NCBI GenBank assembly: GCA_036939755.1
Contig: JALLAZ010000440.1
Location: 1 to 15,424, forward strand
Length of the DNA stretch: 15,424 nucleotides
Reading direction: 5' to 3'
DNA from: Stephanodiscus triporus
Lineage: Eukaryota; Bacillariophyta; Thalassiosirophyceae; Thalassiosirales; Thalassiosiraceae
The position numbers were made by a program, and so were the translations under genes. Of the stretch, positions 861 to 15,347 are shown piece after piece (the stretch's first letter is position 1; the number at the start of each line of letters is the position of its first letter). The notes beneath the pieces are model-generated. The model searched no databases. It worked only from the letters and a program-made list of their open reading frames with translations, and had not been told where the DNA came from.

Positions 861-1577
861 AAATATCACCTCACTAGCAAGAAGGTAAAATATCACATGA
901 AGCTGCTTGAAGCAGATCCCAACTTCACAGCGTGGAGTTGGAGTTGAGCGCGGAGTGAGGCTACTGTATTTTTCAAGTAGATATGTATGAAATATCGCCT
1001 CTGAAATATCGACCAAATACCGCCCGAAACCCCCTGAAAAATCAATTGTGTTTGAGATTTTGGGCGGGGTCATGCATTGACACCAATAAATCTGCTGGCC
1101 GAGTTGTGGTGCCCAAGATGAACAACCAAAACATCAAGACCATGCACGACACACCAAGTTCAATGACGTGGTGACCGCTGAAGCTGGAGGGTCGTCCGCG
1201 TCGTGGTCGTGTCATATGTGCACGTATCTGACACCCGTGATGCCCTGTGGCTGTGGCAGAGTAGAGAGTAGTCATGTGACTTAGCATATCATGTAACTCT
1301 GAAGACAGCACGATATTAGAAGATAGAGAGACATGGCACAGAGGAAAGTTATTGCCATTCATCTCCCAAAGAAAATTTGGGTTCTCAGATCAGCTTCCAC
1401 GTGGCAGACCTAGACGATATCCAGAGCTGGTTCTTCTTGCTCCAGCCCCATGCGCTAGCCCCATGCGCTCAAACAGGCCATGGCGATCCCTGCCTCTCCT
1501 CTACTCTAGACCATTATGATCTCCGGCCCGGTCGCTCCCTATCGCCCCCACGACATTCCTTCCACCAAGAAACCATC

Positions 1578-2783
1578 ATGATCATCGGCCCCGTCGCCGA
1601 TCCGACCCAATCGTGGTGGCTCAGGGACCAACCCGCGCTCGTCGCCCATCCGCCTACGCCCCTGCCCGAGCGATGCGACATAGTCGTCGTCGGGGCGGGG
1701 ATGACCGGCGCCTCCATCGCGTACTGGCTTTCCGAGCGACACGGCCGAACTTGCCTCCTCCTCGACGCGCGCGGGGTCGCCGGGGGCGCCACCGGTCGCA
1801 ATGGTGGTCATCTCTGGCCGAACCTCACGTCGGACCTCGAGCGCGAAACCGTGAGGGACCTGCTTGACTTCATCGCGGAGCGCGACGTCGACTGCGACCT
1901 GACCGTGCTGGGCGCGGTCGACCTCGCCGCCGAGACACCGCCCGACGACGACGACGATGACTGGGGAGAGCTCGAGTTATGGGATGAGGAGACCTGCGCG
2001 GAAAAGTTCGGCACTGACGCCTTCGTCTGGGGGAAGCACCATCCCGCCGCCGCCCAGTTCTCGGCGGCTCGCGCGACGCGGGCCATGCTTGAGGCGGCTG
2101 GTCCACACGCGATGGTATGCGCGCCGGTGCGGGTGTTGAAGATCTCGGACGACGTCGAGGGAGGTGGGACGATCGTCGACACGGATCTCGGTTCGGTGGC
2201 GGCGGATCAGGTGGTGGTGGCCACCAACGGATGGGCATCGGAGCTCCTGCCGGAGCTCGTGGACATTCTGTACCCGTGCAGGAATCAGGTGATAATGACA
2301 TCGCCCTACGCGGTATCGGACAGCTGGGGCGCCGGAGCCTTTAGCGTCGGCGCTCTGACCGGCCATGGGGACATCGAGGAGGAGATCTACTGCATCAGGC
2401 GACCGGACGGGCGGCTTTGCGTTGGGGGCGCGAGGAACCTGGAGCACGACGCGGCCGTCGGGAACAGCGACGACGGTACGCTCAACGAGTCGGTGGGGAA
2501 GCGACTCAGGGACTTCTTGGAAACGTCCTTCCCGGCCCTCGCGCCATTGAGCGTCGAGGCTGAATGGACGGGCGTCATCGGGCTCACCGTGGATAGGAGG
2601 CCGGTGGTCGGGCGGATGCCCTCTCGCAATGGCGTATTTGTCGCGGCCGGCTACAATGGGCATGGCATGCCGCAGTGCTTTGGGGTTGGGAAGTTCATTG
2701 CAGATATGCTGGCGGGTAGGGCGGAGGAAGAATTAAGCCCTCACATTCGCAGCCTCTCTCCCGATCGCTTCTTCGACAAGTAA
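1578..2783 (+). CDS. FAD-dependent oxidoreductase (DAO family)
   Basis: This is a 401-residue flavin oxidoreductase of the D-amino-acid-oxidase fold (GlpO/sarcosine-oxidase-like), probably oxidising an amine or amino-acid-like substrate; the substrate cannot be told. The Rossmann dinucleotide-binding motif is at residues 39-44 (GAGMTG, preceded by IVVV), an ATGRNGGH stretch follows at 71-78, and the C-terminal flavin-contacting glycine-rich GYNGHGM is at 358-364. I chose the ATG at 1578 because SWWL and the beta strand before the Rossmann motif follow at the spacing usual for this group. An in-frame ATG at 1377 would add 67 residues without recognisable homology or a targeting signal. The gene is intronless and its third codon positions are almost all G or C, unlike the intron-bearing genes downstream, which hints at foreign origin. 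An acidic run of six aspartates interrupts the middle. No transmembrane segment is seen. The closest style I recognise is that of fungal and bacterial homologues. Confidence 0.85.
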   Translation: MIIGPVADPTQSWWLRDQPALVAHPPTPLPERCDIVVVGAGMTGASIAYWLSERHGRTCLLLDARGVAGGATGRNGGHLWPNLTSDLERETVRDLLDFIAERDVDCDLTVLGAVDLAAETPPDDDDDDWGELELWDEETCAEKFGTDAFVWGKHHPAAAQFSAARATRAMLEAAGPHAMVCAPVRVLKISDDVEGGGTIVDTDLGSVAADQVVVATNGWASELLPELVDILYPCRNQVIMTSPYAVSDSWGAGAFSVGALTGHGDIEEEIYCIRRPDGRLCVGGARNLEHDAAVGNSDDGTLNESVGKRLRDFLETSFPALAPLSVEAEWTGVIGLTVDRRPVVGRMPSRNGVFVAAGYNGHGMPQCFGVGKFIADMLAGRAEEELSPHIRSLSPDRFFDK

Positions 2784-3236: not shown

Positions 3237-3269
3237 GCAAATGGGCAGCATGAGCGGCTGACAGGAGAC

Positions 3270-3421
3270 CTGTTGCACCTAATATCCAAAATATCCTAGT
3301 ATCCATAATCCCTGGATTAGTTCCGAGAAAAGGGTATAGGCCCAACAGATTTGTGGGGTTTTTCTCGGAACTGAAGCGGGGATTATGGATACTGGGATAT
3401 TTTGGATATTAGGTGCAACAG
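3270..3421. mobile_element. 152-bp foldback/MITE-like element
   Basis: The arms 3270-3331 and 3359-3421 are near-perfect inverted copies. The outer roughly 43 bp (starting CTGTTGCACC and ending GGTGCAACAG) carry one mismatch, followed by a short divergent stretch and then a perfect inner part (AGTTCCGAGAAAA). The loop is about 27 nt and there is no coding capacity. Long terminal inverted repeats around a tiny core are the hallmark of foldback MITEs or other non-autonomous DNA transposons. A target-site duplication is not evident in the flanks. If transcribed it would form a long hairpin RNA. Confidence 0.7.
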
Positions 3422-3724
3422 ATCCGGATAGGAATGGGGGAAACAGGGTTGGTGGGTTGTTGAGTATGGGGGGTTGTATTTTTTCGACGAGCGCCACACT
3501 TGCATGTGTGATGTGTACCATTCCTCGGAGTAATTCACACTTGAGATAGTTAGGCTTTAGGGTAATTTTCTTCTTTGACTTCTTTCCTCGGGGAGAGATT
3601 TCTCTGATAAAATTTGACTCCGACGAGCAAACCTTTCGGAGAGCGTCGCTAACAAAAATAGGTACATCTTTCTAGAGTCGTATGATAGAGGATAAGAGCT
3701 CAATAACACACGACCGCCCCGGAA

Positions 3725-4842
3725 ATGAACGCTGCTATCAAAATAGGATTTACTCTCATAGGCCTCTGCGCATCTCTCGACTGGGCGGTAGAGGGTGGTG
3801 AATTCTCATCAAATGTCGTCATGCTCAACTCGCGGAACTGGCGGAAGGAAGTTGAGGAATCAGCACACGCTGTATTTGTGAATGTCTGGTGAGTACGAGA
3901 TGAGACGAATCTTATCTTGCCGAGATGTGAACCTGTTTCGGCCTGTAGGCCTTGCGCGACATCGGGTGATCCCCCAGTAGTTGCCTCATGAGATTTTTTG
4001 CTTTCAATTTACATCACAGTCGAAGCGGATGAGGCTACTGCCAACTCTTGAACCCCGAGTGGGAAGAGTTGGCGTCAAGAGTAAAAGGATTCGTTAAAAT
4101 AGCATATTGGGATACCGAGAAGTCCGGCGCTGTGCCGAGCATTTTGGGCGAGATCCGTGGCACGCCCACAATCAAGCTGCTGAAGCCAAAGCGAAAGGCG
4201 AAAACGAACAAACAAAAAGACGTAATCGACTACAACATGGAAAGGAAGGCGAGCGACAGTAAGTGACGACTCTTTGTGTGTTTTCGGGCACAAATTCTAT
4301 CAACCTGACAACGGTAATTTGGAGGCTTACTCGTTGTTTTACCTATTCTTGAACAAACGTTGCAAGTGTCAAATTTTGCTCTTGATCTCATGCCATCTTT
4401 TGTAGAGCGTGTCAATGGACCCGACGACTTTGAGAAGTTCAAGTCCAAAGCGAAGAAGTACGGCCTGCCAATGATGCTATTTTTCAGTGACGATCGACAA
4501 ATTTTGAACGAGATGAAATTTCTATCAACAGAATTCCGTCGAAAGTTACTGGTCGGCCAAATCCCGTATACAAAGAAAGAAAATAAGAGTATTTTCCTCG
4601 AATATGGAGTACGTGGACAGGCTCTTCTTGTTGTGCCTCCCAGTAGTGAGGATGAGGTCGAGAATGAGGATGTATCGGGAGAGAGCAGAAAGCAGCTGGT
4701 TTCTTTTGATGGGAAATGGACTTTGCATCGGCTTCAAAGCTTCTTTCACAACCACGCCCTCAAGTCTGAGGTGAAACCAAAACCAGCAGAGGAAACAAAG
4801 GCGGAAGAGAAGGTGCAAGAAACGATCAAAACTGAGCTGTAG
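3725..4842 (+). CDS. PDI-like ER selenoprotein (in-frame TGA = Sec)
   Basis: Three exons, 3725-3888, 4020-4258 and 4367-4842, joined across GT-AG introns of 131 and 108 nt, encode 292 residues. An N-terminal signal peptide (hydrophobic core around residues 7-18) leads to a thioredoxin domain at about 30-125. At the active site the frame reads C55-R-S-G-TGA-G-Y-C62, so the TGA at codon 59 occupies the first cysteine of CxxC and is best read as selenocysteine, giving a UxxC redox centre. The cis-proline is P104 (GTPT). After the second intron the frame continues M135-S-N-F and a second, non-catalytic thioredoxin-like region (about 150-240), then a Lys/Glu-rich tail ending in KTEL, a KDEL-type ER-retention signal. 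The expected role is thiol-disulfide exchange in the ER lumen. No frame-compatible acceptor I could find removes TGA while keeping G-Y-C. Homology and splice sites continue intact past it, so a pseudogene is unlikely. A candidate SECIS lies in the 3' UTR. Confidence 0.85.
4030..4032 (+). other. Selenocysteine (UGA) recoding codon
   Basis: TGA is codon 59 of the PDI-like protein, in frame with both flanking parts of the thioredoxin domain and three codons before the resolving cysteine TGC. The position corresponds to the nucleophilic cysteine of CxxC, the place where Sec replaces Cys in redox selenoproteins. Confidence 0.8.
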
Positions 4843-4913
4843 GTGGAAGATTTCGTCATCATGCGTGAGAAGGACACTGTTATTAGTTAAGATGCAAAGA
4901 GAGGATGATTTTA

Positions 4914-4982
4914 CCAAAAAAGATCGAATGACGGCCGGAGTTGATTCATGACGAAAATCACCTGGCCTGAAACATCGGTTGG
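4914..4982 (+). promoter_or_regulatory. Candidate SECIS element in 3' UTR
   Basis: The element lies 71 nt after the stop codon of the PDI-like gene. The lower helix pairs CCAA (4914-4917) with TTGG (4979-4982) and GAT (4922-4924) with ATC (4974-4976). The non-Watson-Crick core would be ATGA (4928-4931) plus C4932 facing TGA (4968-4970). The helix above starts immediately with GGCC (4933-4936) on GGCC (4964-4967) and continues with bulges to about 4946/4956. The 36 nt between ATGA and TGA match the size of known eukaryotic SECIS apical parts. A weakness is that the apical adenines (4954-4957) lie on the 3' side of the loop, farther from ATGA than the usual 10-13 nt, so this may be a variant form or a partly wrong fold. 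Confidence 0.55.
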
Positions 4983-5182: not shown

Positions 5183-6169
5183 TTAACCTCGCTTCATGTA
5201 AAAAATCCAATCATCTTGACCTCTCCCAGTCTTACCCGCACGTACGATGCGTGTATCATCGTCCAAGTATGTCATCTTCCACGTCCGAGACGTCCCCTTC
5301 TTAAATTGTTGAGTGAATATTGGCACGTGGAAAATGGATAGAGTCAAAGATACAAAATCAACCTTCCATGTAGTGGCTCCGTGATCCTCGCCGACGTATT
5401 TCCGCTCATTATTGTCGAGAGATGATGATTGAATTTCTACATCGGCAGAATCCAAGTATACACCATCCCACTCGTTCCATGAAGCATCCAACACGGCCGT
5501 CAGCCACGCACCTTGCACATCCCCACCATCATTATTTGGCCCCGTACTACTACCACCTCCGCCAACATACAACTCATTCCGATATCGCTTATCCTTCAAA
5601 TCGATCACCTGCTTGGCGATGCCCCTGAATATTCCGAATTGACCGTTCGACGGAGGAGGAGCGTCTGTGTAATGCACCACCCACGAACCTTCCATCCGTG
5701 CGTCGCGTGCCGGTTCGGATAACGAGTTCAGCGCCTCGAGGTTGGATAGGAGGGCGTGCAGTTGCGCACGACGCTGCGTGGATTCGACCGACCTTCCTCT
5801 GTCCGTGCTGGCTCTTTTTTTTCGTTTTCATTTGGGTGTGATGCATCGTTGGCGATTGGCGTGGGATTACCGCATTATTTGAAGGCGACGAGACAGATAC
5901 TAGAGACGATAGATGGTATTCACTCACATCGATTCTTCGATTTGCATTTTGGCGGCAGTCACGGCATCACTATCATCATCGGCCATCGACGATGGAAATG
6001 TTACGGATTCGGAAAAAAAAACGCTGTCTGCAATCACCGTCGTCGTCGACGTCGACGGCGGTGTGACAGCGTGCACAGCGCTCGTCACAAACGCCGCTGA
6101 AGGGGTTGTCGACGTAATACCCACGACAAAGGCTACTGCGAACACCCCTTCTTTTAGATTCCTCATCAC
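5183..6169 (-). CDS. Plastid lipid-associated protein (PAP/fibrillin)
   Basis: Two exons on the minus strand, 6169-5928 and 5798-5183, are joined across a 129-nt GTGAGT...CAG intron and encode about 285 residues. The N-terminus is a signal peptide (hydrophobic core around 8-19) with the cleavage motif P-S-A-A/F27-V, followed by a Ser/Thr-rich stretch. This is the bipartite presequence of diatom-type complex plastids. The PAP/fibrillin domain follows: M116-EGSW-VVHYT, then PSNGQFGIFRG, KQVIDL and YRNEL, WLTAVL with WNEWDGV, TWKVDF, and the strongly conserved end YLDDDTRIVRAG followed by FYM. Fibrillins bind lipids in plastoglobules and thylakoids. The acceptor CAG at 5801-5799 is preferred; an AAG seven bases further would also keep frame and drop two residues. 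The gene is divergent from the BT1 transporter and convergent with the PDI-like gene. Confidence 0.85.
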
Positions 6170-6481
6170 GTTGTGCGCAGCCGATAAAATCTGTCCCGAG
6201 CAACCCGGTTTTGTGGTGGATACTATGATGTATCGTACACATAAGAGAAGAGACCTTCAATCGAGGGTACCATACGAAAAAAACGATGCCTGTGGACAGC
6301 GAAGCTAGAGGGGCGGTCGTAGGTAAGTGAACGTACGGGTTGCTGAACACGTATCGTATCAATATCCGGCCGGCCTCGAGCGAGGCAGGGCGCTCGATTG
6401 ATCCCATCATCGCGGCGCGTAGTAGTGGCGGGTCTCCTCTCTACGATCGGCTGATTGTTGTTGTACTGACTACAGTGGAGG
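6170..6481. promoter_or_regulatory. Shared divergent promoter region
   Basis: These 312 bp lie between the start codons of the PAP/fibrillin gene (-) and the BT1-type transporter (+) and must carry both 5' UTRs and promoters. No consensus TATA box or other defined element can be assigned with confidence. Confidence 0.6.
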
Positions 6482-8965
6482 ATGAATCTGAATCCCGACA
6501 TTACCGGTGGAGTCGGCGAGCAAGTCGCAGATATCCTCGACAATATTCCAAGCGATCGCGAGCGCGGAGGGTATCGTTTCCGACGACCGGCACCCTTCGA
6601 CATATTCCGTCAGGGACGTCCGTCATCTGCGACAACGCGCGACAACGAAGGAAAAGGAGCCTTCATCTCGGGTGGAGAGCAAACGGCAGGCGAGGAGCCG
6701 GCGGAGGACAGGTGGGTAGGCGCCCTTGATGTGCAGAAGGCCGAGAGCGACATATATAACATTTCGGCGTCGCACGATGACGAGCCGATAGATCCATTGT
6801 CGCGGGATTATGTCGGCATCATCGCGAACTACTTTAGCGTCGGATTGATGGTCGGGGGGTCCACATCGTTATTGTATCCCGTTCTGATAGTCCGAGCGGG
6901 AGTCACGTCATCGTTAATGGCGGCATCCTACGCCACTGTAATGGTTTTTTGGTCGTATAAAATCTTCTTCGGATTTCTCAGTGATTGTTTCCCCGTCTTT
7001 GGATACAAACGAAAGCCATACATTACACTTGGGGTGAGTTCTTTCGTGGAAGATTCTATTGTGCAATCAGCGCTCTCTCATGACTATATATGACCTTGAT
7101 TCATAATAAGTGGCTCTTCTGCGCGGGAGTGCTGATTGCCCTTGCCAATGAAGGTGATGATGTTGACCCTAGAAATATCGTACTGATGTTGGCTTTGGCT
7201 AACTTGGGATACGTTTGGGCCGACGTTGCAGCAGATGGATTCATGGTTTGGATAGCCCACCGAGAACCTATCGAGAAGAGAGGGAAGATGCAAACGCTCG
7301 TGTACTCAATGAACAAACTTGGCCAGATCTTCATCAATATCTTAATTCTCTTCGGCTTTTCTGGACCTGTAATGAACTGCGCTGGTTTTGAACCCGATCC
7401 TGATATACCCTGCACGACAAACATATATGTGACGCAACGAGTCGATCCAGAGTTGTATCAAAGCAATCCGAATGGCTGGTGCTACGAAAAATGCCACCAG
7501 GCTACATTTGATTGGGATTTAGGCATCCCGTATGTACATTGAGACTACTCACTGCGTGATTGACATGCTGTTTTTTTCTAACTCATATCTTTTTTTTCGC
7601 AACTTATACAGTGCATTTGCAATGAGCATCTGCTGTGTGATAGCTGCATCCTTGCCATTATATCTCCGATTAAAGGAGGAAAAAGTCTCAGCTGAGCCAA
7701 GGGTTGAATTTCTGATGAAATTTTGGTCGCAAATAAAACGTCGTGCTTGCTGGCAAATCATTCTCTGTAAGGGAACCTTTGACATCATTTGTTATTCAAA
7801 TCATTCTCAGGCGACTTTAACCTTTTATTCTTGACAGATGGGATGATATCACACATTACATTTGGGGTTATAAATGGTGAGTGCATTCGAGCTTTTTATC
7901 AAAATGCAGAGTTGATATCTCTTGAGCTTAACTTTGGTACGTGTTTTTTTTTTCAAGTCGCAAAAATCTCGGCAAACTATGTGTGGCTTGACTTGCACAC
8001 ATTTCAACACCAAATCATGCTCATTTTTGAGAAGTTATTTTTCTTCATTGGGCTCACCCTTGTTCGGCGCTATGCACTCAATATTTCGTGGAGGAAGTTG
8101 GTCTTAGTTGGCTCGTGCCTAGTGTTTTTCTTCAACGTGAGTGTAGCATAATATGGTGTTATTGTTTTCAACCTCTCTCTCACCTCTTCCCTGCACTATC
8201 GTTTTCGCAGAGCCTATATTTCTTGATCATCTTTGATGTTTATCGAAACGCTTGGTTTTACATCTTCACCGATGTTAGGTAAGTAAGCCCTTGGCTGCAT
8301 TCCCCAGCGCCTGGACTGGAGCGATCACTCACATTGCAATTACTGCATCTCCGTCCTTCAGTGCACTATTCATGTACACACTGAACTTCTTGGCTTCACA
8401 CGCGTCGATGGTTGAAGTGGCCCAACCCGGATATGAGGCTATCACATACAGTTTGATTACGACAGCAACCAATGCAGTATCACCATTGAGTGCAGTTGTT
8501 AGCTACCAACTGCTCGCCTTCTTCCCGTCATTGAACGACCAAGAGAGCATAGCAACAGACACTCCTCAAATACGCAAGGATTTTGCATGCTTGCACACAC
8601 TTATCATCCTCCTGAACATGTCCAGTCTCTTATCGCTCCCATTGCTTCCGAGACAGAAGAAAGAAACCAGGGAGCTGGTGGCCAAAGGAGAGACATCCAG
8701 CTTTTGGGGGCGTTATGTCATCGTCTCGGCATTCACATTTCTGTGCTACTCAACATTGGTGACTATTGTCACAGTCAAATATCATGATGTCTATGGATGT
8801 ATGAAGATATTGGGCGGAGGGGGGTGCAGTGGAGAAGAAAGCAGCACCATGGCCTTCGGGTTGGTATCAGTTATCTTACTGTACTGTTATGGGACCAACT
8901 TTTACCTCTCATATTGGCCTATTGTGAAGGGAGAACACAAATTCAGCTGGAAAATGTTTGTGTGA
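6482..8965 (+). CDS. BT1/folate-biopterin-type membrane transporter
   Basis: A seven-exon gene: 6482-7033, 7111-7529, 7612-7766, 7838-7876, 7958-8136, 8211-8278 and 8362-8965. The introns of 71-83 nt all have GT-AG ends and frame-compatible phases, giving 671 residues. The first ~100 residues are hydrophilic. From about residue 108 a series of hydrophobic helices begins. The family signature is at 164-180, GFLSDCFPVFGYKRKPY, the loop after the second or third helix. Further BT1-like features are the A-D-V-A-A-D-G-F segment in exon 2, N-I-S-W-R in exon 5 and the PGYEA-TYSL segment in exon 7. BT1 proteins are MFS-related carriers of folates, pterins or S-adenosylmethionine; the substrate here is unknown. 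A 39-nt micro-exon (exon 4) is notable. For the last intron I prefer the acceptor at 8361, with a good pyrimidine tract and an 83-nt length, over one at 8307 that would give only 29 nt. Confidence 0.85.
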
Positions 8966-9177
8966 TCATCCAATACACAATAGGACGACACTGAATGCAT
9001 TTTTCGGATCTTGTATAGAATAGGACCAATTTTCAATAGGATTAAATTGATTGTGCGCATTTTTCAACTCATGTCTATGTGAGTTGCCTCATATTATTTC
9101 TTTCAACTCGATCACGGCTTCACCGGTGAGTAGACACCATTTCAAATATTCTGGTGGAACATTTTATACTAAGGAGC
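8966..9177. other. Convergent 3' spacer
   Basis: A short AT-rich stretch between the stop codons of the BT1-type transporter (+) and the small membrane protein (-). It has no gene and no clear structure. Confidence 0.6.
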
Positions 9178-9738
9178 TTATGAGAATGGCTTCCAATTGC
9201 GGAGAATCAATGCAACAACAACCGTCAAAGGAATAGCAAAAATGAATCGCTCGTAATGTATCTTTGCCACCTCCTTCCCATCCCACTTGTCCCTTATCGC
9301 CGTTGTTACATGATTTATGCCACTCAATGCAATGAAGGTAATTACAACCAACATCAATGTTGCTATAGCTGCATCGCTCGCCTCGATGGAAAGAAGAATT
9401 ATCATAACCACAGCAGATGAAATATTGTTAATTCCGCACTGAACTTGATATGGAGTACCAGTTGGCCATTTCTTCGCCTTGGCGCTGATGTCAGGAAGAA
9501 AGAGCGATTCCAGCCCGGTGACGCCAGCGAGGAAGAATACAAGGAGAGCTGCCGATAGGCGATAGTTGGGCCGTGGTACTCCTGTGAAACCTATTACTAT
9601 GGATGCGATAGTCCCACCGATTCTGATCAATTCTATGACGACGACGAGCGCGGACTGGAACGGTGTGTTTGCCTCCAACGATTCGCCCTGTCTAGCGATC
9701 AGAGGGAGGGAGAAGGTTTCATCTGTTGACGAAGTCAT
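9178..9738 (-). CDS. Small five-helix membrane protein, unknown function
   Basis: A single exon on the minus strand encodes 186 residues. After a polar N-terminus of about 27 residues, hydrophobic segments lie near 28-50, 61-77, 107-122, 125-143 and 163-180, predicting an integral membrane protein. The loop after the second helix has a K-W-P-T-G-T-P-Y-Q-V-Q-C-G pattern, resembling the G-W-P-x-G-S-P-F-Q motif of small bacterial membrane proteins of the DUF6790 type. I make this link tentatively and from memory. The composition is clearly protein-like (ordered helices, charged loops), so I regard the gene as real. No catalytic residues or targeting signal are evident. It converges on the BT1-type transporter, with about 210 bp between stop codons. 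Confidence 0.7.
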   Translation of the reverse strand: MTSSTDETFSLPLIARQGESLEANTPFQSALVVVIELIRIGGTIASIVIGFTGVPRPNYRLSAALLVFFLAGVTGLESLFLPDISAKAKKWPTGTPYQVQCGINNISSAVVMIILLSIEASDAAIATLMLVVITFIALSGINHVTTAIRDKWDGKEVAKIHYERFIFAIPLTVVVALILRNWKPFS

Positions 9739-10249
9739 TGAGATCGAGTATTATGCTTGGCGTCAGTGTTGGGGTGTTGAGGTTTAAGTGCTGTCCAATT
9801 TTTATGCAATTTTCATTGATCAGTAGTCCATTCTGGTCACAGTTCATTCTCCTCATCACACAGCTCTCCAAGATGCAAGAAGAGGAGGTGTTGGGCGGCG
9901 GCGGTGCTGACGAAGGGTTGCAAATCAATGAGCAGAGTTCCCAAGCGTCCGATCCTGACCACAGGAAAAATTTGGTATTGCAATTATTGCCAATATTGCA
10001 ACATTTTGTTACCTATTTTTATTGCAAATTTAAAATTCATCATTTTATTTTATTGTTACAGTACAATATTTAATATTTACCGTATTTACTTGGTTTTTCG
10101 GGACCGATTTAGCTAAGATTAGGAATAGATTCTCGGCATTCCGCACAAGCACTCAACGAGTGCCTGCCCCGGCGCCGTACCCATCCCCCGGGGCGTTCCC
10201 CGGAGCGAAGCTGAAGTCGACTTCACGTCTCAGTCTCCCTTCCAAGGCT
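9739..10249. other. Intergenic, AT-rich core and GC hairpin
   Basis: This contains the upstream region of the small membrane-protein gene and the 3' UTR of the exostosin gene. The part around 9960-10090 is markedly AT-rich; 10150-10210 is GC-rich with hairpins. No coding frame is convincing. Confidence 0.6.
10150..10203 (-). repeat. Hairpins downstream of the exostosin stop
   Basis: CACTC/GAGTG (10150-10154 and 10158-10162) and the strong CCGGGG-CGTT-CCCCGG hairpin (10188-10203, 6 perfect GC pairs, 4-nt loop) lie 47-100 nt after the exostosin stop codon, within the probable 3' UTR. They may affect 3' processing or stability; the function is not known. Confidence 0.5.
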
Positions 10250-11524
10250 TTAAGAATCCCTCCCACGTAGTCTCGCATCGGAGTCCCTCACGTAATCATC
10301 GTAGAATTGCACAACCTTCTGTTGCATTTCGCATAACCGATCACTGTCGAAAGACTTCAGCACATCCATCGTTCGATTAACCTCGACCTGTGGCAGCAGT
10401 ACTGACACATCATTCCAATTCACGACGTCCTCGGTGTAGGGAAGGATCCAACCATCCGCGTAAACGACGGGAATCGCACCGGCGCTTAGGACCTCGCTGA
10501 AGCGATAGCTGTACAGGCAGTCGCCACGAGGTGCACCGGCAAAACGCGAAGAGCGGAGTAGGTTCATGTACGTATCATTCCCAAATTGGCTCCTTCTGTG
10601 CGAAAACGAAACATTCGTCACATCCTTCGTGTAGTGATCAGATCCAAAGTTGGCATACACGCCTGGTGTTCCGTGAAGGGGCCCCCAATATTCACTAAAA
10701 TGTTGAAAACGTGGACGTCCCTTGAAGAAGAAAAGGAAAGGTCGTGTGTCGTTGCCGAGCCGGCAGTTGGCAATGTCCTGTCGCTCCGAGGCGTTAAGGA
10801 TCACCGGCTTGATGGGGAGAGGGGGTATCCCCATGTCGTTCTTCGCCACCCCGTTTATCCTGTGAGCGGTCTGATGGGCCACCACGAGCTTGTCCATGAT
10901 CGTGCGATTGCGATAGCCGTTGTGCGTCCAATTCATCAAGCATTCGGGATGGCCCGGGAAGCAGCTCATCACCACGAGTATCGACTCTGGCGCCATCATT
11001 GCGGGCGACTCCAACGCCCGCTCGATGAGATCGCACATATCGTTGGCGAGGTACCCCGGCATCGCGGATCGGCCGTTCTCCAAGTCGACGCTCGTTTCGT
11101 AGGAGCACATGACCGGCCAGCAGGTTTCGCCGCAAGTTTCGACGTCGATGAACGCCACTATCGAACGGGCGGGATCCGGATTCCGAGATAGCATCGTCCA
11201 CGCGCTGGAGTTGTACCGCGGGTGCCTCACGACGGCGTCGGCGTAAACGGCGCTGCTCTTGAACCGCCCGGTCTTGATCGCGACCTCGGGGTCAGGGTGG
11301 AACCAGCCGAAGTTGGTGAAGGTCAGGTCGCGCCGATCGATATCCCCAACAACCCCCCCCACCGTGTGAAAGATTCCAATCCTCGATAGGCTGCTCAACG
11401 ATTGAGTTTTCGACGTTATGATCTCACTCATGCGCACGACAAAGGTCATCGCGAAGACGATTACGATGCTGACCATCACGAGTTTTCCTTTGCCCGAACC
11501 GCGCAGTTGTTTGGATAGAGCCAT
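10250..11524 (-). CDS. Exostosin-family (GT47) glycosyltransferase
   Basis: An intronless minus-strand gene of 424 residues. The topology is type II membrane: a short basic cytoplasmic tail, one anchor at about 15-31, then a large lumenal domain, as usual for Golgi glycosyltransferases. The exostosin signature runs from about 320 to 378: LLRSSRFAGAPRGDC, then YRFSEVLSAGAIPVV and the W-N-D-V-S-V strand near 370-376, which form the nucleotide-sugar-binding half of GT47 enzymes. Upstream, FFFKGR at about 265-270 is the strand preceding it. Eight N-glycosylation sequons (N105, N198, N206, N244, N258, N304, N316, N382) support a lumenal location. The enzyme presumably builds a cell-wall or secreted polysaccharide; donor and acceptor are unknown. 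The gene is fairly GC-rich. It is transcribed divergently from the Suz12-like gene across about 300 bp. Confidence 0.85.
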   Translation of the reverse strand: MALSKQLRGSGKGKLVMVSIVIVFAMTFVVRMSEIITSKTQSLSSLSRIGIFHTVGGVVGDIDRRDLTFTNFGWFHPDPEVAIKTGRFKSSAVYADAVVRHPRYNSSAWTMLSRNPDPARSIVAFIDVETCGETCWPVMCSYETSVDLENGRSAMPGYLANDMCDLIERALESPAMMAPESILVVMSCFPGHPECLMNWTHNGYRNRTIMDKLVVAHQTAHRINGVAKNDMGIPPLPIKPVILNASERQDIANCRLGNDTRPFLFFFKGRPRFQHFSEYWGPLHGTPGVYANFGSDHYTKDVTNVSFSHRRSQFGNDTYMNLLRSSRFAGAPRGDCLYSYRFSEVLSAGAIPVVYADGWILPYTEDVVNWNDVSVLLPQVEVNRTMDVLKSFDSDRLCEMQQKVVQFYDDYVRDSDARLRGRDS

Positions 11525-11825
11525 CTTTGTCTAAGTAGTTAGTTGAAAATAACATGAGAAAATAGCTTATTTGCGACTGAGTGAAGCAAATGTGATGTGT
11601 GGGTGCATGCCGCTACCAGCCAACTCTCGACCGAAGGCCGATCGCCAGTAGCCGCAAATAAGAGACTGGCTGCGTAATGAGAGGAGCGTCGGCCGGGCGG
11701 GGGTGGCCGGAGCTCGCAATCACAAAACGGGTTGGGTATCGTATGGTTCGTTAGGTAGAGTAGTTCGCGTTATGTAGATACGAGTACTATCATCATATCT
11801 AATACCATACACACCGTGCAACCCC
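11525..11825. promoter_or_regulatory. Bidirectional promoter region with inverted repeat
   Basis: This 301-bp interval separates the start codons of the exostosin gene (-) and the Suz12-like gene (+). CTTATTTGCG at 11566-11575 and CGCAAATAAG at 11653-11662 form a perfect 10-bp inverted repeat 77 bp apart, possibly paired binding sites. No defined core-promoter element could be assigned. Confidence 0.55.
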
Positions 11826-13733
11826 ATGGACTTTGACTCTCTCATAGGATCGGCCGCCTACCTCGCCAAGCAGCTGGAGCTTCGGTGGTTTTATCAGTGG
11901 GAACTCACGGGCGGCCCCGATCACTCCGCCGCCGGCATAAATTATTATGCGTCATCTGGGGCGGGAGGTAACTATCAGGCGTTGCAGCAACAGGCTCCAT
12001 CGAACGGGCGACTCATTCGAAAGCGCCATCATTCCATGCCATTTCTGCGTAGAAATATTAATGCACGCGGCAATGGGTTCCGCCGGTCAAAGAATTCACG
12101 AGGAGACTCCGCAAGGAAAACTGCTCCAAGTAACAGTGGGATATTCGCCGCACGAGCGGAGGCTCGTCCCAAACAGACCACGATGAAACGGGTGAAAGAT
12201 TTGAATGATTCCAAAAACAACAAGCGCGCCCGTGTCAAAATGAATGCGTCTTCTCCGTCCCGGCTCCCTATTGATCAATCGATGCCATTGTCTTCATTAA
12301 CGATGGCGTTTCAATCATACATTGAGTCCCCAACGGTGCGCCAGAGGGTTCTGAATAAAATTCCGAAGGAGATGCATCACGACGAGACGTTCGTATTGGA
12401 GCGTATAAAAGAGACTTGGCTAGATAGCATCGATAGCGCCACTCCCGATATCGAGGGGCTACACGCTGAATCATGTGTCATCGCTCATACGAATGAAGGG
12501 AAAGGCCAACCTGGTAGTCGAAGTGACTCTATCATGCAGAGTAGATCGAGGTCATCCCTTGACTTTTCTTCGAAAGTGCTGCCTACGGACTATGATAACT
12601 TAAATGCATGTATAATCCTGCCTCCGGAAGCGGTCTTTCCTGGAGATACAGAAGATCAGTTGAGACTTGAGTCTAATACGGAACGTGGCCGGACTCAGCT
12701 CCCTCCTGCATTCTTCCATTATCTTTATATGCAACCGAATAATGTACCTGCTACTATTGTGGAAGAGATTGAAGGACGCGTTTGTCCGATGTGCAGCTTT
12801 GATGGCAAAAGCAACGAGGGCCTGCTCGGCCACTGTGGAATGTATCATGGCACGTTGCTCAAGGCAAATGATAACAATCCTTCTATTGCCATGGAGGGAA
12901 ACGAGGGATGCGCATTTTTCGAAGCAGCCTTGGGGGAAGAAGGGCAGTTACATGTCGTTGTCCGAGTGATTCCATTATCTTCATCGCACACTCTGTCAAA
13001 ATATCGCATGCGCGACAATTTTGTGTTCATCCAACCAAAGTGGAGGCATTCGTTATCTAAACATCGAGTCATGGCGTATGAGATGTCAGGAGACCATCGA
13101 TATGAGAGGGGGGAAGATGAATTGGTGACTGGCAGCAGTACACGTAAATTGAGCATGCGACGAATGACAATTCCTTTCCTCCAGCGTCGTCACGACGTAG
13201 CTGCCACTCTCGATGCGGGCACGCGCAACAAAAGGCTTCTTGCTCTGCAGGCAAGCGATGCCCCGGCATCAATTATATCGGCATATCTCCCAAGTGACAC
13301 TGTGCCGATGCGGCAATACTTCCACTCTCGGACGAACCTTCCCATGTCTCATGGTGAATGGATGGTGGATTCTGACGACGAGATCGACGAAACTTGGCTG
13401 CACGAGATGACCTCGGAGCTGCTGGACGAATTGGAAGATGTTTCGGCGAAGGAGAAGCACTTCATGAAATTATGGAACAGATTCATAAAGAGCACTCATG
13501 TCATTGCCGATAGAGACGTGCCAGGAAAGTGCCACGACTTCATTTTGAGCCACCGAAAGCAATTGCTCAACGCGGGCCTGCGTTTGAATTTGCTTCTGCA
13601 TCTATTCAATCTTTGGGATTCGGGGGTTATCTCGTCGGATAGAATCCTTCATTGCATGTCATTGTTTGATGCTGCCGAAAATAATGACACAAGACCAAGT
13701 AGTAAAAAAACCGGTGCAGGGTCCAAACCATGA
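11826..13733 (+). CDS. Suz12-like PRC2 subunit (VEFS-box protein)
   Basis: A single-exon gene of 635 residues. It encodes the diatom-type equivalent of Suz12/EMF2/VRN2, the scaffold subunit of Polycomb repressive complex 2, which with E(z) and ESC deposits H3K27 methylation in the nucleus. Evidence: one C2H2 zinc finger at residues 320-341 (C320-x2-C323-x12-H336-x4-H341), followed by a structured segment, and a C-terminal VEFS box at about 495-610. The VEFS box shows YFHSRT-LPM, D-S-D-D-E-I-D-E-T-W-L, EKHFMKLWN-F, a short segment ending VPGKCHDFI and H-R-K-Q-L; this order is diagnostic. The first ~290 residues are low-complexity, basic and Ser/Arg-rich with little recognisable homology apart from a MPFLRRN motif near 64-70. 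The stop codon lies only 70 bp from that of the convergent 2OG oxygenase gene, so the 3' UTRs must overlap or be very short. Confidence 0.88.
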   Translation: MDFDSLIGSAAYLAKQLELRWFYQWELTGGPDHSAAGINYYASSGAGGNYQALQQQAPSNGRLIRKRHHSMPFLRRNINARGNGFRRSKNSRGDSARKTAPSNSGIFAARAEARPKQTTMKRVKDLNDSKNNKRARVKMNASSPSRLPIDQSMPLSSLTMAFQSYIESPTVRQRVLNKIPKEMHHDETFVLERIKETWLDSIDSATPDIEGLHAESCVIAHTNEGKGQPGSRSDSIMQSRSRSSLDFSSKVLPTDYDNLNACIILPPEAVFPGDTEDQLRLESNTERGRTQLPPAFFHYLYMQPNNVPATIVEEIEGRVCPMCSFDGKSNEGLLGHCGMYHGTLLKANDNNPSIAMEGNEGCAFFEAALGEEGQLHVVVRVIPLSSSHTLSKYRMRDNFVFIQPKWRHSLSKHRVMAYEMSGDHRYERGEDELVTGSSTRKLSMRRMTIPFLQRRHDVAATLDAGTRNKRLLALQASDAPASIISAYLPSDTVPMRQYFHSRTNLPMSHGEWMVDSDDEIDETWLHEMTSELLDELEDVSAKEKHFMKLWNRFIKSTHVIADRDVPGKCHDFILSHRKQLLNAGLRLNLLLHLFNLWDSGVISSDRILHCMSLFDAAENNDTRPSSKKTGAGSKP

Positions 13734-13803
13734 GCGTTCTTTACTATGGTTATGTATTGTTCTTGCAATGCCAGGAGCGATATTGATGAACTTTAGGTGA
13801 TCA

Positions 13804-15255
13804 TTACTGCTCTACTACCCCTCCATCATCGTCGATAAGAAAATAATCTTCTCCGGCAATCCCGTTCTCTTCTGGTCGGATGATCCAGAGTGTTAGAGCC
13901 CTACGGGTCTTGTCTTCGTTCAAAACCTTTTCCACCGAATGAACCATACGGCTGTCGAATAATAGGAGCTTTCCATTTGAGGGATTAATATCGATATACT
14001 TATGCCTGTCCACTACCATGTAAGGATGTAACACTCCAACGCTGTCGAGGTACATGCGCAGCTCGCCGCCATCACATTTTTCCCAGCCCTCGTTCATGTA
14101 AAGTATTGCAGTTATATAGCGCCAATTTGATCGCCTCCGAGGAAGCAATGTTCCATCTGAGTTAAGTGTGGACGGTGAAAGTTTGTCCTTCGCTCCAGTC
14201 ACTGTCCCGCCATCAAATACACCATATGGATTAATCCTAAAATCAAATGAATTGTCGCTATGGGGCTTGTAATAATCATTTACTCCGTACTCAGCTATCT
14301 GAACATTGAATCCTGTTGGATTAGTCAGTGGGCGCTCGGCTGTGCCGGGGGACATTGGCTTGTAAGGAGGAGGGTCTTGTAAGGAGAAGTCAAGGTTATC
14401 GTTGAGATGGGAAGCCAACGTTAACAGAAAGTCATGTTGATCCTCCAAGCCATACTCCAAGGCATCAACTCGATCGAGAAATGAGACTCTGTCTGTACGG
14501 TAGTCTCTCGCATCAGCTTTTCCTTTGCCCTGGCTTGTCTTAGCCTGGCTTGCAACATCGAGTTTCTCATTGGATGATTGTGTTGTCTTAATGACATTGT
14601 CAATGACTACAAATCCATCTTGTTGCAATTTTGCTAATGCATCCGAATCTACTAATTGCTTGAGGATAAGTCCAAATTTCTCGTCTCCGATAGCCTCGCT
14701 CGAAGTTAATTCAGCATCTTTACCTGTATCTGGGGGTTGACTGTTGAGAAAATCCAGCACGTTACTCTCAAGATCCTTTATACAAACGGCATGACGAATG
14801 TCAGCACGATGTCGGTACAATTCTAAACAGAGCATCCCGAAGTCTTCCATGGGACTATTGAAGTCGAATGTGAAGAGGATGTACTCCGTCGGGTTGCCAT
14901 TCTCGCAGGTGGAAGGGCGAGGAGAAAAAGTTACCGTGGCGGAATCGCCAAAGTCTGGCATTCGACAAGATGACAATTGATGACCCCATGTTGACACCGA
15001 TGATTTAATCATGAACTCGGAGGATGCAACTAATGCCTCAAACGCTGAGGATAGTGAGTTGCCGATATCTATTTCGGTTCGTACCATGCCACTCGAATTA
15101 GGCTTGATAGGAAATATGAGTTGGTGTTGAGGATGCGAAGAATAGACAGCACCCAGGCAATCGATCGAAGGGCTGAAGGATTTGACGACGCTGATGCCGA
15201 TGGTCACCAGTACTAGGAGAAGCGGAACACCGCGCAATGAAGTCGTCGTCGCCAT
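13804..15255 (-). CDS. 2-oxoglutarate/Fe(II)-dependent oxygenase (prolyl-hydroxylase-like)
   Basis: An intronless minus-strand gene of 483 residues. The C-terminal 2OG-Fe(II) oxygenase domain spans about 310-462. The iron ligands are H332 and D334 (in Y-K-P-H-S-D) and H439 (in R-M-V-H-S), and the 2-oxoglutarate-binding arginine is R451 or R452 (R-R-A-L-T-L-W). Between them lie the usual R-Y-I-T-A-I-L-Y-M-N and G-G-E-L-R strands. This pattern matches prolyl-4-hydroxylase and EGLN/PHD-type enzymes; the substrate is unknown. The N-terminus has a hydrophobic signal sequence (about 9-24) followed by K-S-F27-S-P, so the product enters the ER. F27 after the probable cleavage site leaves open import into a complex plastid. 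The ~280 residues before the oxygenase domain show no domain I recognise. The ATG at 15255 is chosen because the signal peptide follows at once. Confidence 0.85.
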   Translation of the reverse strand: MATTTSLRGVPLLLVLVTIGISVVKSFSPSIDCLGAVYSSHPQHQLIFPIKPNSSGMVRTEIDIGNSLSSAFEALVASSEFMIKSSVSTWGHQLSSCRMPDFGDSATVTFSPRPSTCENGNPTEYILFTFDFNSPMEDFGMLCLELYRHRADIRHAVCIKDLESNVLDFLNSQPPDTGKDAELTSSEAIGDEKFGLILKQLVDSDALAKLQQDGFVVIDNVIKTTQSSNEKLDVASQAKTSQGKGKADARDYRTDRVSFLDRVDALEYGLEDQHDFLLTLASHLNDNLDFSLQDPPPYKPMSPGTAERPLTNPTGFNVQIAEYGVNDYYKPHSDNSFDFRINPYGVFDGGTVTGAKDKLSPSTLNSDGTLLPRRRSNWRYITAILYMNEGWEKCDGGELRMYLDSVGVLHPYMVVDRHKYIDINPSNGKLLLFDSRMVHSVEKVLNEDKTRRALTLWIIRPEENGIAGEDYFLIDDDGGVVEQ

Positions 15256-15347
15256 GGTCCTATCGTAGATTTTTCTAATCTAAAGGACCATTCTACTGAG
15301 TGTTCCTCCATCCCATCTACACCCCTTCCAAAATCGTGCTGGCCAAT

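What the first reader, a model, noticed from the sequence alone, without database searches (positions are those of the whole stretch)
3725..4842. PDI-like gene with an in-frame TGA replacing the catalytic cysteine: a selenoprotein
Joining the exons at good GT-AG sites gives one reading frame with a signal peptide, thioredoxin domain, cis-Pro loop, second thioredoxin-like domain and a KTEL end. It is interrupted only by a TGA that falls exactly on the first cysteine of the CxxC site (U-G-Y-C). Sec at this place is chemically sensible. To my knowledge PDI-like selenoproteins are known from some microalgae, including a haptophyte. Automated annotation would truncate or split this gene.
Basis: partly seen in the sequence, partly recalled or inferred. 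Interest (0 to 1): 0.85.

Follow-up and report, generated by a model that had tools for sequence, protein, structure and literature searches.

The report
Diatom disulfide isomerase using selenocysteine
A diatom gene for a protein-folding enzyme carries a stop codon exactly where its reactive cysteine should be, and relatives and the rest of the genome indicate that this codon is read as selenocysteine, a kind of algal enzyme already known but easily mis-annotated.

Summary
Three exons (3725-3888, 4020-4258, 4367-4842) give one 292-residue frame broken only by a TGA at codon 59 (4029-4031), the first redox position of a thioredoxin domain (U-G-Y-C), ending in KTEL. Three lines support selenocysteine. 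(1) Of 206 listed homologues, 170 do not reach this column; 21 show W (inferred: TGA as read by table-4 callers) and 7 full-length family members show Cys. (2) The genome has tRNA-Sec, eEFSec and Sec codons in SPS2, GPx, SelT and a SelU-like gene. (3) A SECIS-like hairpin, AATGACG-stem-TGA, starts 84 nt after the stop. In the DNA held this descriptor occurs at five places, all downstream of Sec genes on the same strand. Weak points: no transcript, SepSecS not found, no Rfam SECIS match, no apical AA, ordinary folding energy. PDI selenoproteins, two in a diatom, are published, so this is a new member of a known kind. A third cysteine four residues before Sec is conserved and may be the more interesting detail.

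The parts
3725..3888 (+). Exon 1: start codon, hydrophobic N-terminus, first part of the thioredoxin domain up to ...FVNVC (split codon)
   Evidence: donor TG|GTGAGT; homologues continuous across the junction
3889..4019 (+). Intron 1, 131 nt, GT-AG
   Evidence: an intron at the same place is seen unspliced in homologue P0061
4020..4258 (+). Exon 2: active site C-R-S-G-U-G-Y-C (its first Cys codon split with exon 1), thioredoxin domain, cis-Pro loop GTPTI
4029..4031 (+). In-frame TGA, codon 59, proposed selenocysteine codon
   Evidence: Sec/Cys column in homologues
4259..4366 (+). Intron 2, 108 nt, GT-AG
   Evidence: acceptor set by homologous residues MSxFALDLMPSFVERVNG
4367..4842 (+). Exon 3: second thioredoxin-like domain without CxxC, charged tail, KTEL, TAG stop
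   Evidence: AlphaFold model of homologue P0056 and fold match
4922..4980 (+). Candidate SECIS element in the 3' flank: helix GATCGA/TCGGTT, core TGAC (4929-4932) with TGA (4968-4970), inner stem GGCCGG/CTGGCC
   Evidence: same AATGACG-stem-YGA plan downstream of GPx, SPS2, SelT and a SelU-like gene in the same genome

Best explanation
A nuclear diatom gene for an endoplasmic-reticulum protein disulfide isomerase of the a-b type (one catalytic thioredoxin domain, one thioredoxin-like domain without CxxC, KTEL retention signal). Its nucleophilic cysteine is replaced by selenocysteine encoded by TGA. The likely route, inferred: tRNA-Sec(UCA) is delivered by eEFSec to the UGA under direction of a SECIS hairpin in the 3' untranslated region; the selenolate then attacks substrate disulfides and Cys62 resolves the mixed selenenyl sulfide. 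Shown here: gene model, Sec/Cys column, presence of tRNA-Sec, eEFSec and other Sec genes, and a hairpin plan shared among them. Inferred: actual read-through, SECIS function, ER location and catalytic activity.
For: One frame through three exons interrupted only at codon 59. Of 206 listed homologues, 170 do not reach the column, 21 show W (18 of them full-length) and 7 full-length family members show Cys, as does frog PDIA6. That the W stands for TGA is inferred: in P0061 the window's donor codons TGG-TGA-GTA appear as W-W-V, and in P0061 and P0042 the second donor AGT-AAG-TGA appears as S-K-W, so these records were translated with TGA=W (held against the window DNA). On a tree with this residue masked, the Cys rows make two groups among the Sec/W rows. 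Machinery: tRNA-Sec 83.7 bits with anticodon TCA, eEFSec domain 113.1 bits, E 1.5e-31. Other genes with TGA at Sec positions: SPS2, GPx, SelT, read; SelU-like RSFG-TGA-PFCQ. SECIS-like descriptor: 1 in the 400-nt 3' flank, against 5 of 20000 shuffles; 5 distinct places in 355164 nt (both strands, overlaps included), all 3' of Sec genes on the same strand.
Against: No RNA or protein evidence. SepSecS was not found with TIGR03531 or PF05889, in a fragmentary assembly searched exon by exon; SBP2 and PSTK were not searched. Rfam SECIS_1 gave no hit anywhere in the genome, nor in the window or beside the GPx, SPS2 and SelT genes. The hairpin is no more stable than shuffles (z -0.23, 78 of 200 as good) and lacks an AA or CC 10-13 nt after the quartet. 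The descriptor was fixed after I had seen four of its five places, the window included; with only ATGA as lead, 255 of 20000 shuffles match. Six homologue rows show other residues at the column (E twice; A, Y, P, H once each, these four at alignment edges). DNA of the W homologues was not seen.
Confidence: 0.95

Rival explanations
1. The TGA is an ordinary premature stop and the gene is a pseudogene or allele with a nonsense mutation.
For: No expression data. 99 of 111 first-search homologues do not reach the column, among them a GenBank Thalassiosira model that begins just after it.
Against: The rest of the frame is intact and conserved, with 70% identity to that Thalassiosira protein over 78% of the query; the same codon appears as W in 21 homologues and as Cys in 7 full-length ones, which a private mutation would not give.
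Confidence: 0.02
2. The TGA lies in an intron in the real transcript, so the protein has no Sec.
For: 42 alternative donor-acceptor pairs keep the frame.
Against: Each deletes part of the domain and none has a GTRAGT donor, while the donors used here are GTGAGT and GTAAGT; 17 W and 7 Cys full-length homologues are contiguous through the active site in their records.
Confidence: 0.01
3. The organism reads TGA as tryptophan generally, so residue 59 is Trp.
For: Homologues in the protein collection carry W here.
Against: At least two of those records were translated with TGA=W even inside introns. TGAs in this genome sit on Sec positions of SPS2, GPx and SelT, and a tRNA-Sec with anticodon TCA is present. 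Seven full-length family members have Cys.
Confidence: 0.02

Closest known systems
Diatom PDI selenoproteins: two PDI homologues in Thalassiosira pseudonana (Lobanov 2007, PMC2375036; passages read)
   Same: Sec-containing PDI homologue in a centric diatom; GPx, SelT, SPS2 and SelU are also in that species' list.
   Different: Sequences of the two T. pseudonana proteins were not available to me, so orthology is likely but not shown.
EhSEP2 of Emiliania huxleyi (described in PMC6254913, passages read; original paper not held)
   Same: PDI-like selenoprotein with one catalytic thioredoxin domain, found by 75Se labelling in that alga.
   Different: EhSEP2 motif is UGHC; here UGYC. Different lineage. 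Its sequence was not compared.
Algal PDI_a to PDI_e subfamilies (PMC7539508, passages read)
   Same: PDI_a to PDI_d are PDI-like algal selenoproteins with one Sec.
   Different: Not PDI_e, which has GUGUU. Assignment among a to d needs its Figure S3, not held.
Yeast Mpd1p (PDB 3ed3)
   Different: A yeast cysteine enzyme (recalled); 18% identity.

Membership tests
Eukaryotic selenoproteins | In-frame UGA at a redox position that is Cys in homologues | tested here: met
   7 full-length family members with CGYC and frog PDIA6 with CGHC; 21 rows with W (inferred TGA)
Eukaryotic selenoproteins | Sec machinery in the organism | tested here: met
   tRNA-Sec, eEFSec, SPS2 with TGA; SepSecS not found; SBP2 and PSTK not searched
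Eukaryotic selenoproteins | SECIS hairpin with UGA/GA core in the 3' untranslated region | tested here: inconclusive
   AATGACG-stem-TGA at 4927-4970, plan shared with four other Sec genes, but function untested, z -0.23, no transcript
Rfam SECIS_1 (RF00031) and the classical SECIS rule | Model match; AA or CC 10-13 nt after the quartet (rule as given in PMC2375036) | tested here: not met
   no match, also none beside GPx, SPS2, SelT; 4927-4970 has no AA/CC at that spacing
PDI family | Catalytic thioredoxin domain | tested here: met
   PF00085 51.5 bits, cut-off 23.5; PDI chains of the PDB by sequence profile
PDI family | ER retention signal | tested here: met
   KTEL here; 77 of 111 homologues end KTEL and 105 of 111 end EL or EF; sequence only
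PDI family | ER signal peptide | not tested
   hydrophobic N-terminus seen in sequence; no predictor run
PDI family | Disulfide isomerase activity | not testable with these tools
   needs enzyme assay
Algal PDI_e (GUGUU) | Three neighbouring Sec in GUGUU | tested here: not met
   one TGA only
Algal PDI_a to PDI_d | Subfamily-specific residues around Sec | not testable with these tools
   Figure S3 of PMC7539508 not held

The most novel reading that the evidence does not exclude
The family uses a three-member redox centre, C-x3-U-x2-C: Cys55, Sec59 and Cys62 are the only redox residues outside the leader, with Cys55 at the place of the Tyr in the animal FYAPWCGHC. Cys55 could form an alternative selenenyl sulfide with Sec59, protecting or recycling the selenium in the oxidising ER, a mode not described in the passages on algal PDI selenoproteins that I read. 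The diatom would also use a compact SECIS form without the apical AA.
Probability: 0.25. Interest if true: 0.55.

Novelty: new member of a known kind. Interest (0 to 1): 0.38.

Why it matters
It confirms from raw sequence a gene whose relatives are mostly truncated in public records: 99 of 111 homologues in the first search do not reach the Sec column, so many diatom models lack the active site of a conserved enzyme that is probably in the ER. It would tie selenium supply to protein folding in diatoms, and it gives a compact SECIS-like motif that also picked out a SelU-like Sec gene that had not been used to define it.

Tried and rejected
Rfam scans for a SECIS gave none; the snoZ7 match at 4899-4976 (23.1 bits, gathering 43) is below threshold. 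Scans for a classical SECIS with apical AA or CC gave nothing convincing in the window or in the controls; the best window candidate begins near 5313, has a branched 100-nt interior and lies in the convergent neighbour gene. I suspected the thioredoxin at C149 with one TGA to be a second Sec-PDI; it reads CGHC and the TGA follows the active site, where the exon seems to end. Thioredoxin and MsrA exons starting near an active site showed no clear Sec site; the two MsrA ones (L037, L038) stay undecided because the exon before them was not found. Covariance models were not built because MAFFT misaligned the hairpins. Scans of viral and prokaryote contigs found no relatives. Rows used in the tree: 17 of 18 full-length W rows (P0061 dropped, unspliced), the 7 Cys rows, the window, P0129 and frog PDIA6; P0125 and all partial rows were dropped.

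Full report
What is there. Three exons with GT-AG introns (3725-3888, 4020-4258, 4367-4842) encode 292 residues ending in KTEL, interrupted only by a TGA at codon 59. My first join used a later acceptor and lost 13 residues; homologues show the residues MSxFALDLMPSFVERVNG, which fixes the acceptor at 4367. The N-terminal domain is a thioredoxin (PF00085, 51.5 bits). The TGA replaces the first residue of the CxxC, giving U-G-Y-C; the second Cys and the cis-Pro loop are intact.

Could the TGA be avoided? There is no GT between the start of exon 2 and the TGA. Among GT/GC donors at 3740-4028 and AG acceptors at 4032-4109, 42 joins would remove it and keep the frame; each deletes part of the domain and none has a GTRAGT donor. 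Homologue records run straight through the site.

Relatives. The first protein search gave 111 homologues (query lacking 13 residues), 99 of which do not reach the column. Named sources include Thalassiosira sp., Skeletonema menzelii and Cyclotella cryptica, so the genome is very probably a diatom; no rRNA check was made. A profile search gave 450 proteins, the best 120 listed. Over the 206 different proteins listed, the column was not reached in 170; it was W in 21 (18 full-length), Cys in 9 (7 full-length family members, frog PDIA6, and P0023 at an unreliable edge), E in 2, and A, Y, P, H once each. The W letters are best read as TGA translated with table 4: in P0061 the splice donor that reads TGG-TGA-GTA in the window is given as W-W-V, and in P0061 and P0042 the donor AGT-AAG-TGA is given as S-K-W. 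In a tree of 27 rows with the residue masked, the Cys rows form two groups among the Sec/W rows (2 changes; shuffled mean 6.3, 0 of 500 shuffles as low); many branches there are weakly supported, one origin is not excluded, and the window's branch is long.

Machinery. The genome holds two places scoring over the tRNA-Sec cut-off (83.7 and 71.1 bits). ARAGORN calls the first tRNA-Sec with anticodon TCA and leaves the second unassigned; its loop reads CTTCAAACC. An eEFSec domain is present (113.1 bits, E 1.5e-31). SPS2, GPx (a TAG also falls in its match, at the exon's end) and SelT carry one TGA each, read as KG-TGA-ACK, ASK-TGA-GL and CTS-TGA-GM; SelT is named from its PF10262 match and recalled motifs. 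A SelU-like frame reads RSFG-TGA-PFCQ; its PF13911 match is 21.2 bits, below the cut-off of 27. SepSecS was not found with either model; PSTK and SBP2 were not searched.

SECIS. Rfam's model found nothing, in the window or beside the three control genes, so it is uninformative here. By eye, the 3' flanks of GPx, SPS2, SelT and the window share AATGACG, a stem, and YGA. A descriptor made from these four (AATGACG, at least 6 pairs, inner length 27-60, then TGA or CGA) matched 5 distinct places in 355164 nt counted on both strands with overlaps: those four and one further place about 660 nt downstream, on the same strand, of the matched exon of the SelU-like gene, which had not been used. The DNA held was chosen around thioredoxin-like and Sec-like genes, so it is not a random background. 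In dinucleotide shuffles of the window's 400-nt flank the descriptor occurs in 5 of 20000; with only ATGA as lead, in 255 of 20000. Against it: the hairpin's energy is ordinary (z -0.23), it lacks the AA or CC 10-13 nt after the quartet named in PMC2375036, and the descriptor was set after seeing the window. I take it as the probable SECIS, about 0.85.

A third cysteine. Four residues before Sec/Cys there is a Cys in 24 of 25 homologues where the motif search succeeded, of 27 tried; the exception, P0061, reads an intron there. The two rows that the motif search missed, P0129 and P0130, also show it. In 26 of the 27, the Cys residues outside the first 30 residues are only this one, the one after Sec, and in the Cys forms the one in place of Sec (P0130, which starts late, counted by its two Cys at 25 and 32). 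Its role is unknown.

Literature. Search listings and passages only. PMC2375036 reports two PDI selenoproteins in T. pseudonana; PMC6254913 describes EhSEP2 with UGHC; PMC7539508 sorts algal PDI selenoproteins into PDI_a to PDI_e. A search for UGYC with selenoprotein found 0 papers, which says little because such motifs sit in figures. Hence: new member of a known kind.

Noticed in passing
window 3267-3430: Imperfect palindrome of about 155 bp upstream of the gene (80% identical to its own reverse complement; Rfam MIR6450, 44.7 bits, below gathering 70); whole or partial copies in 8 other contigs of the genome, like a MITE.
   Followed up: partly
window 1320-2783 and 5183-15279: Neighbouring frames with Pfam matches: FAD oxidoreductase (1320-2783, plus), PAP/fibrillin (minus), BT1-family transporter (plus, several exons), exostosin GT47 (minus), VEFS-box polycomb protein (plus), 2OG-Fe(II) oxygenase (minus).
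   Followed up: no
L009 and L010 (G000 C766 and C114): Two different tRNA-Sec-like genes in one assembly, both over the Rfam cut-off, the second unassigned by ARAGORN: two gene copies, or two co-binned strains.
   Followed up: partly
L045 (G000 C361): SelU-like frame with in-frame TGA (RSFG-U-PFCQ) and a matching SECIS-like hairpin downstream, found by the descriptor.
   Followed up: partly
window protein residue 55 (codon split 3887-3888 and 4020): Conserved Cys four residues before Sec, giving C-x3-U-x2-C; role unexplained.
   Followed up: partly
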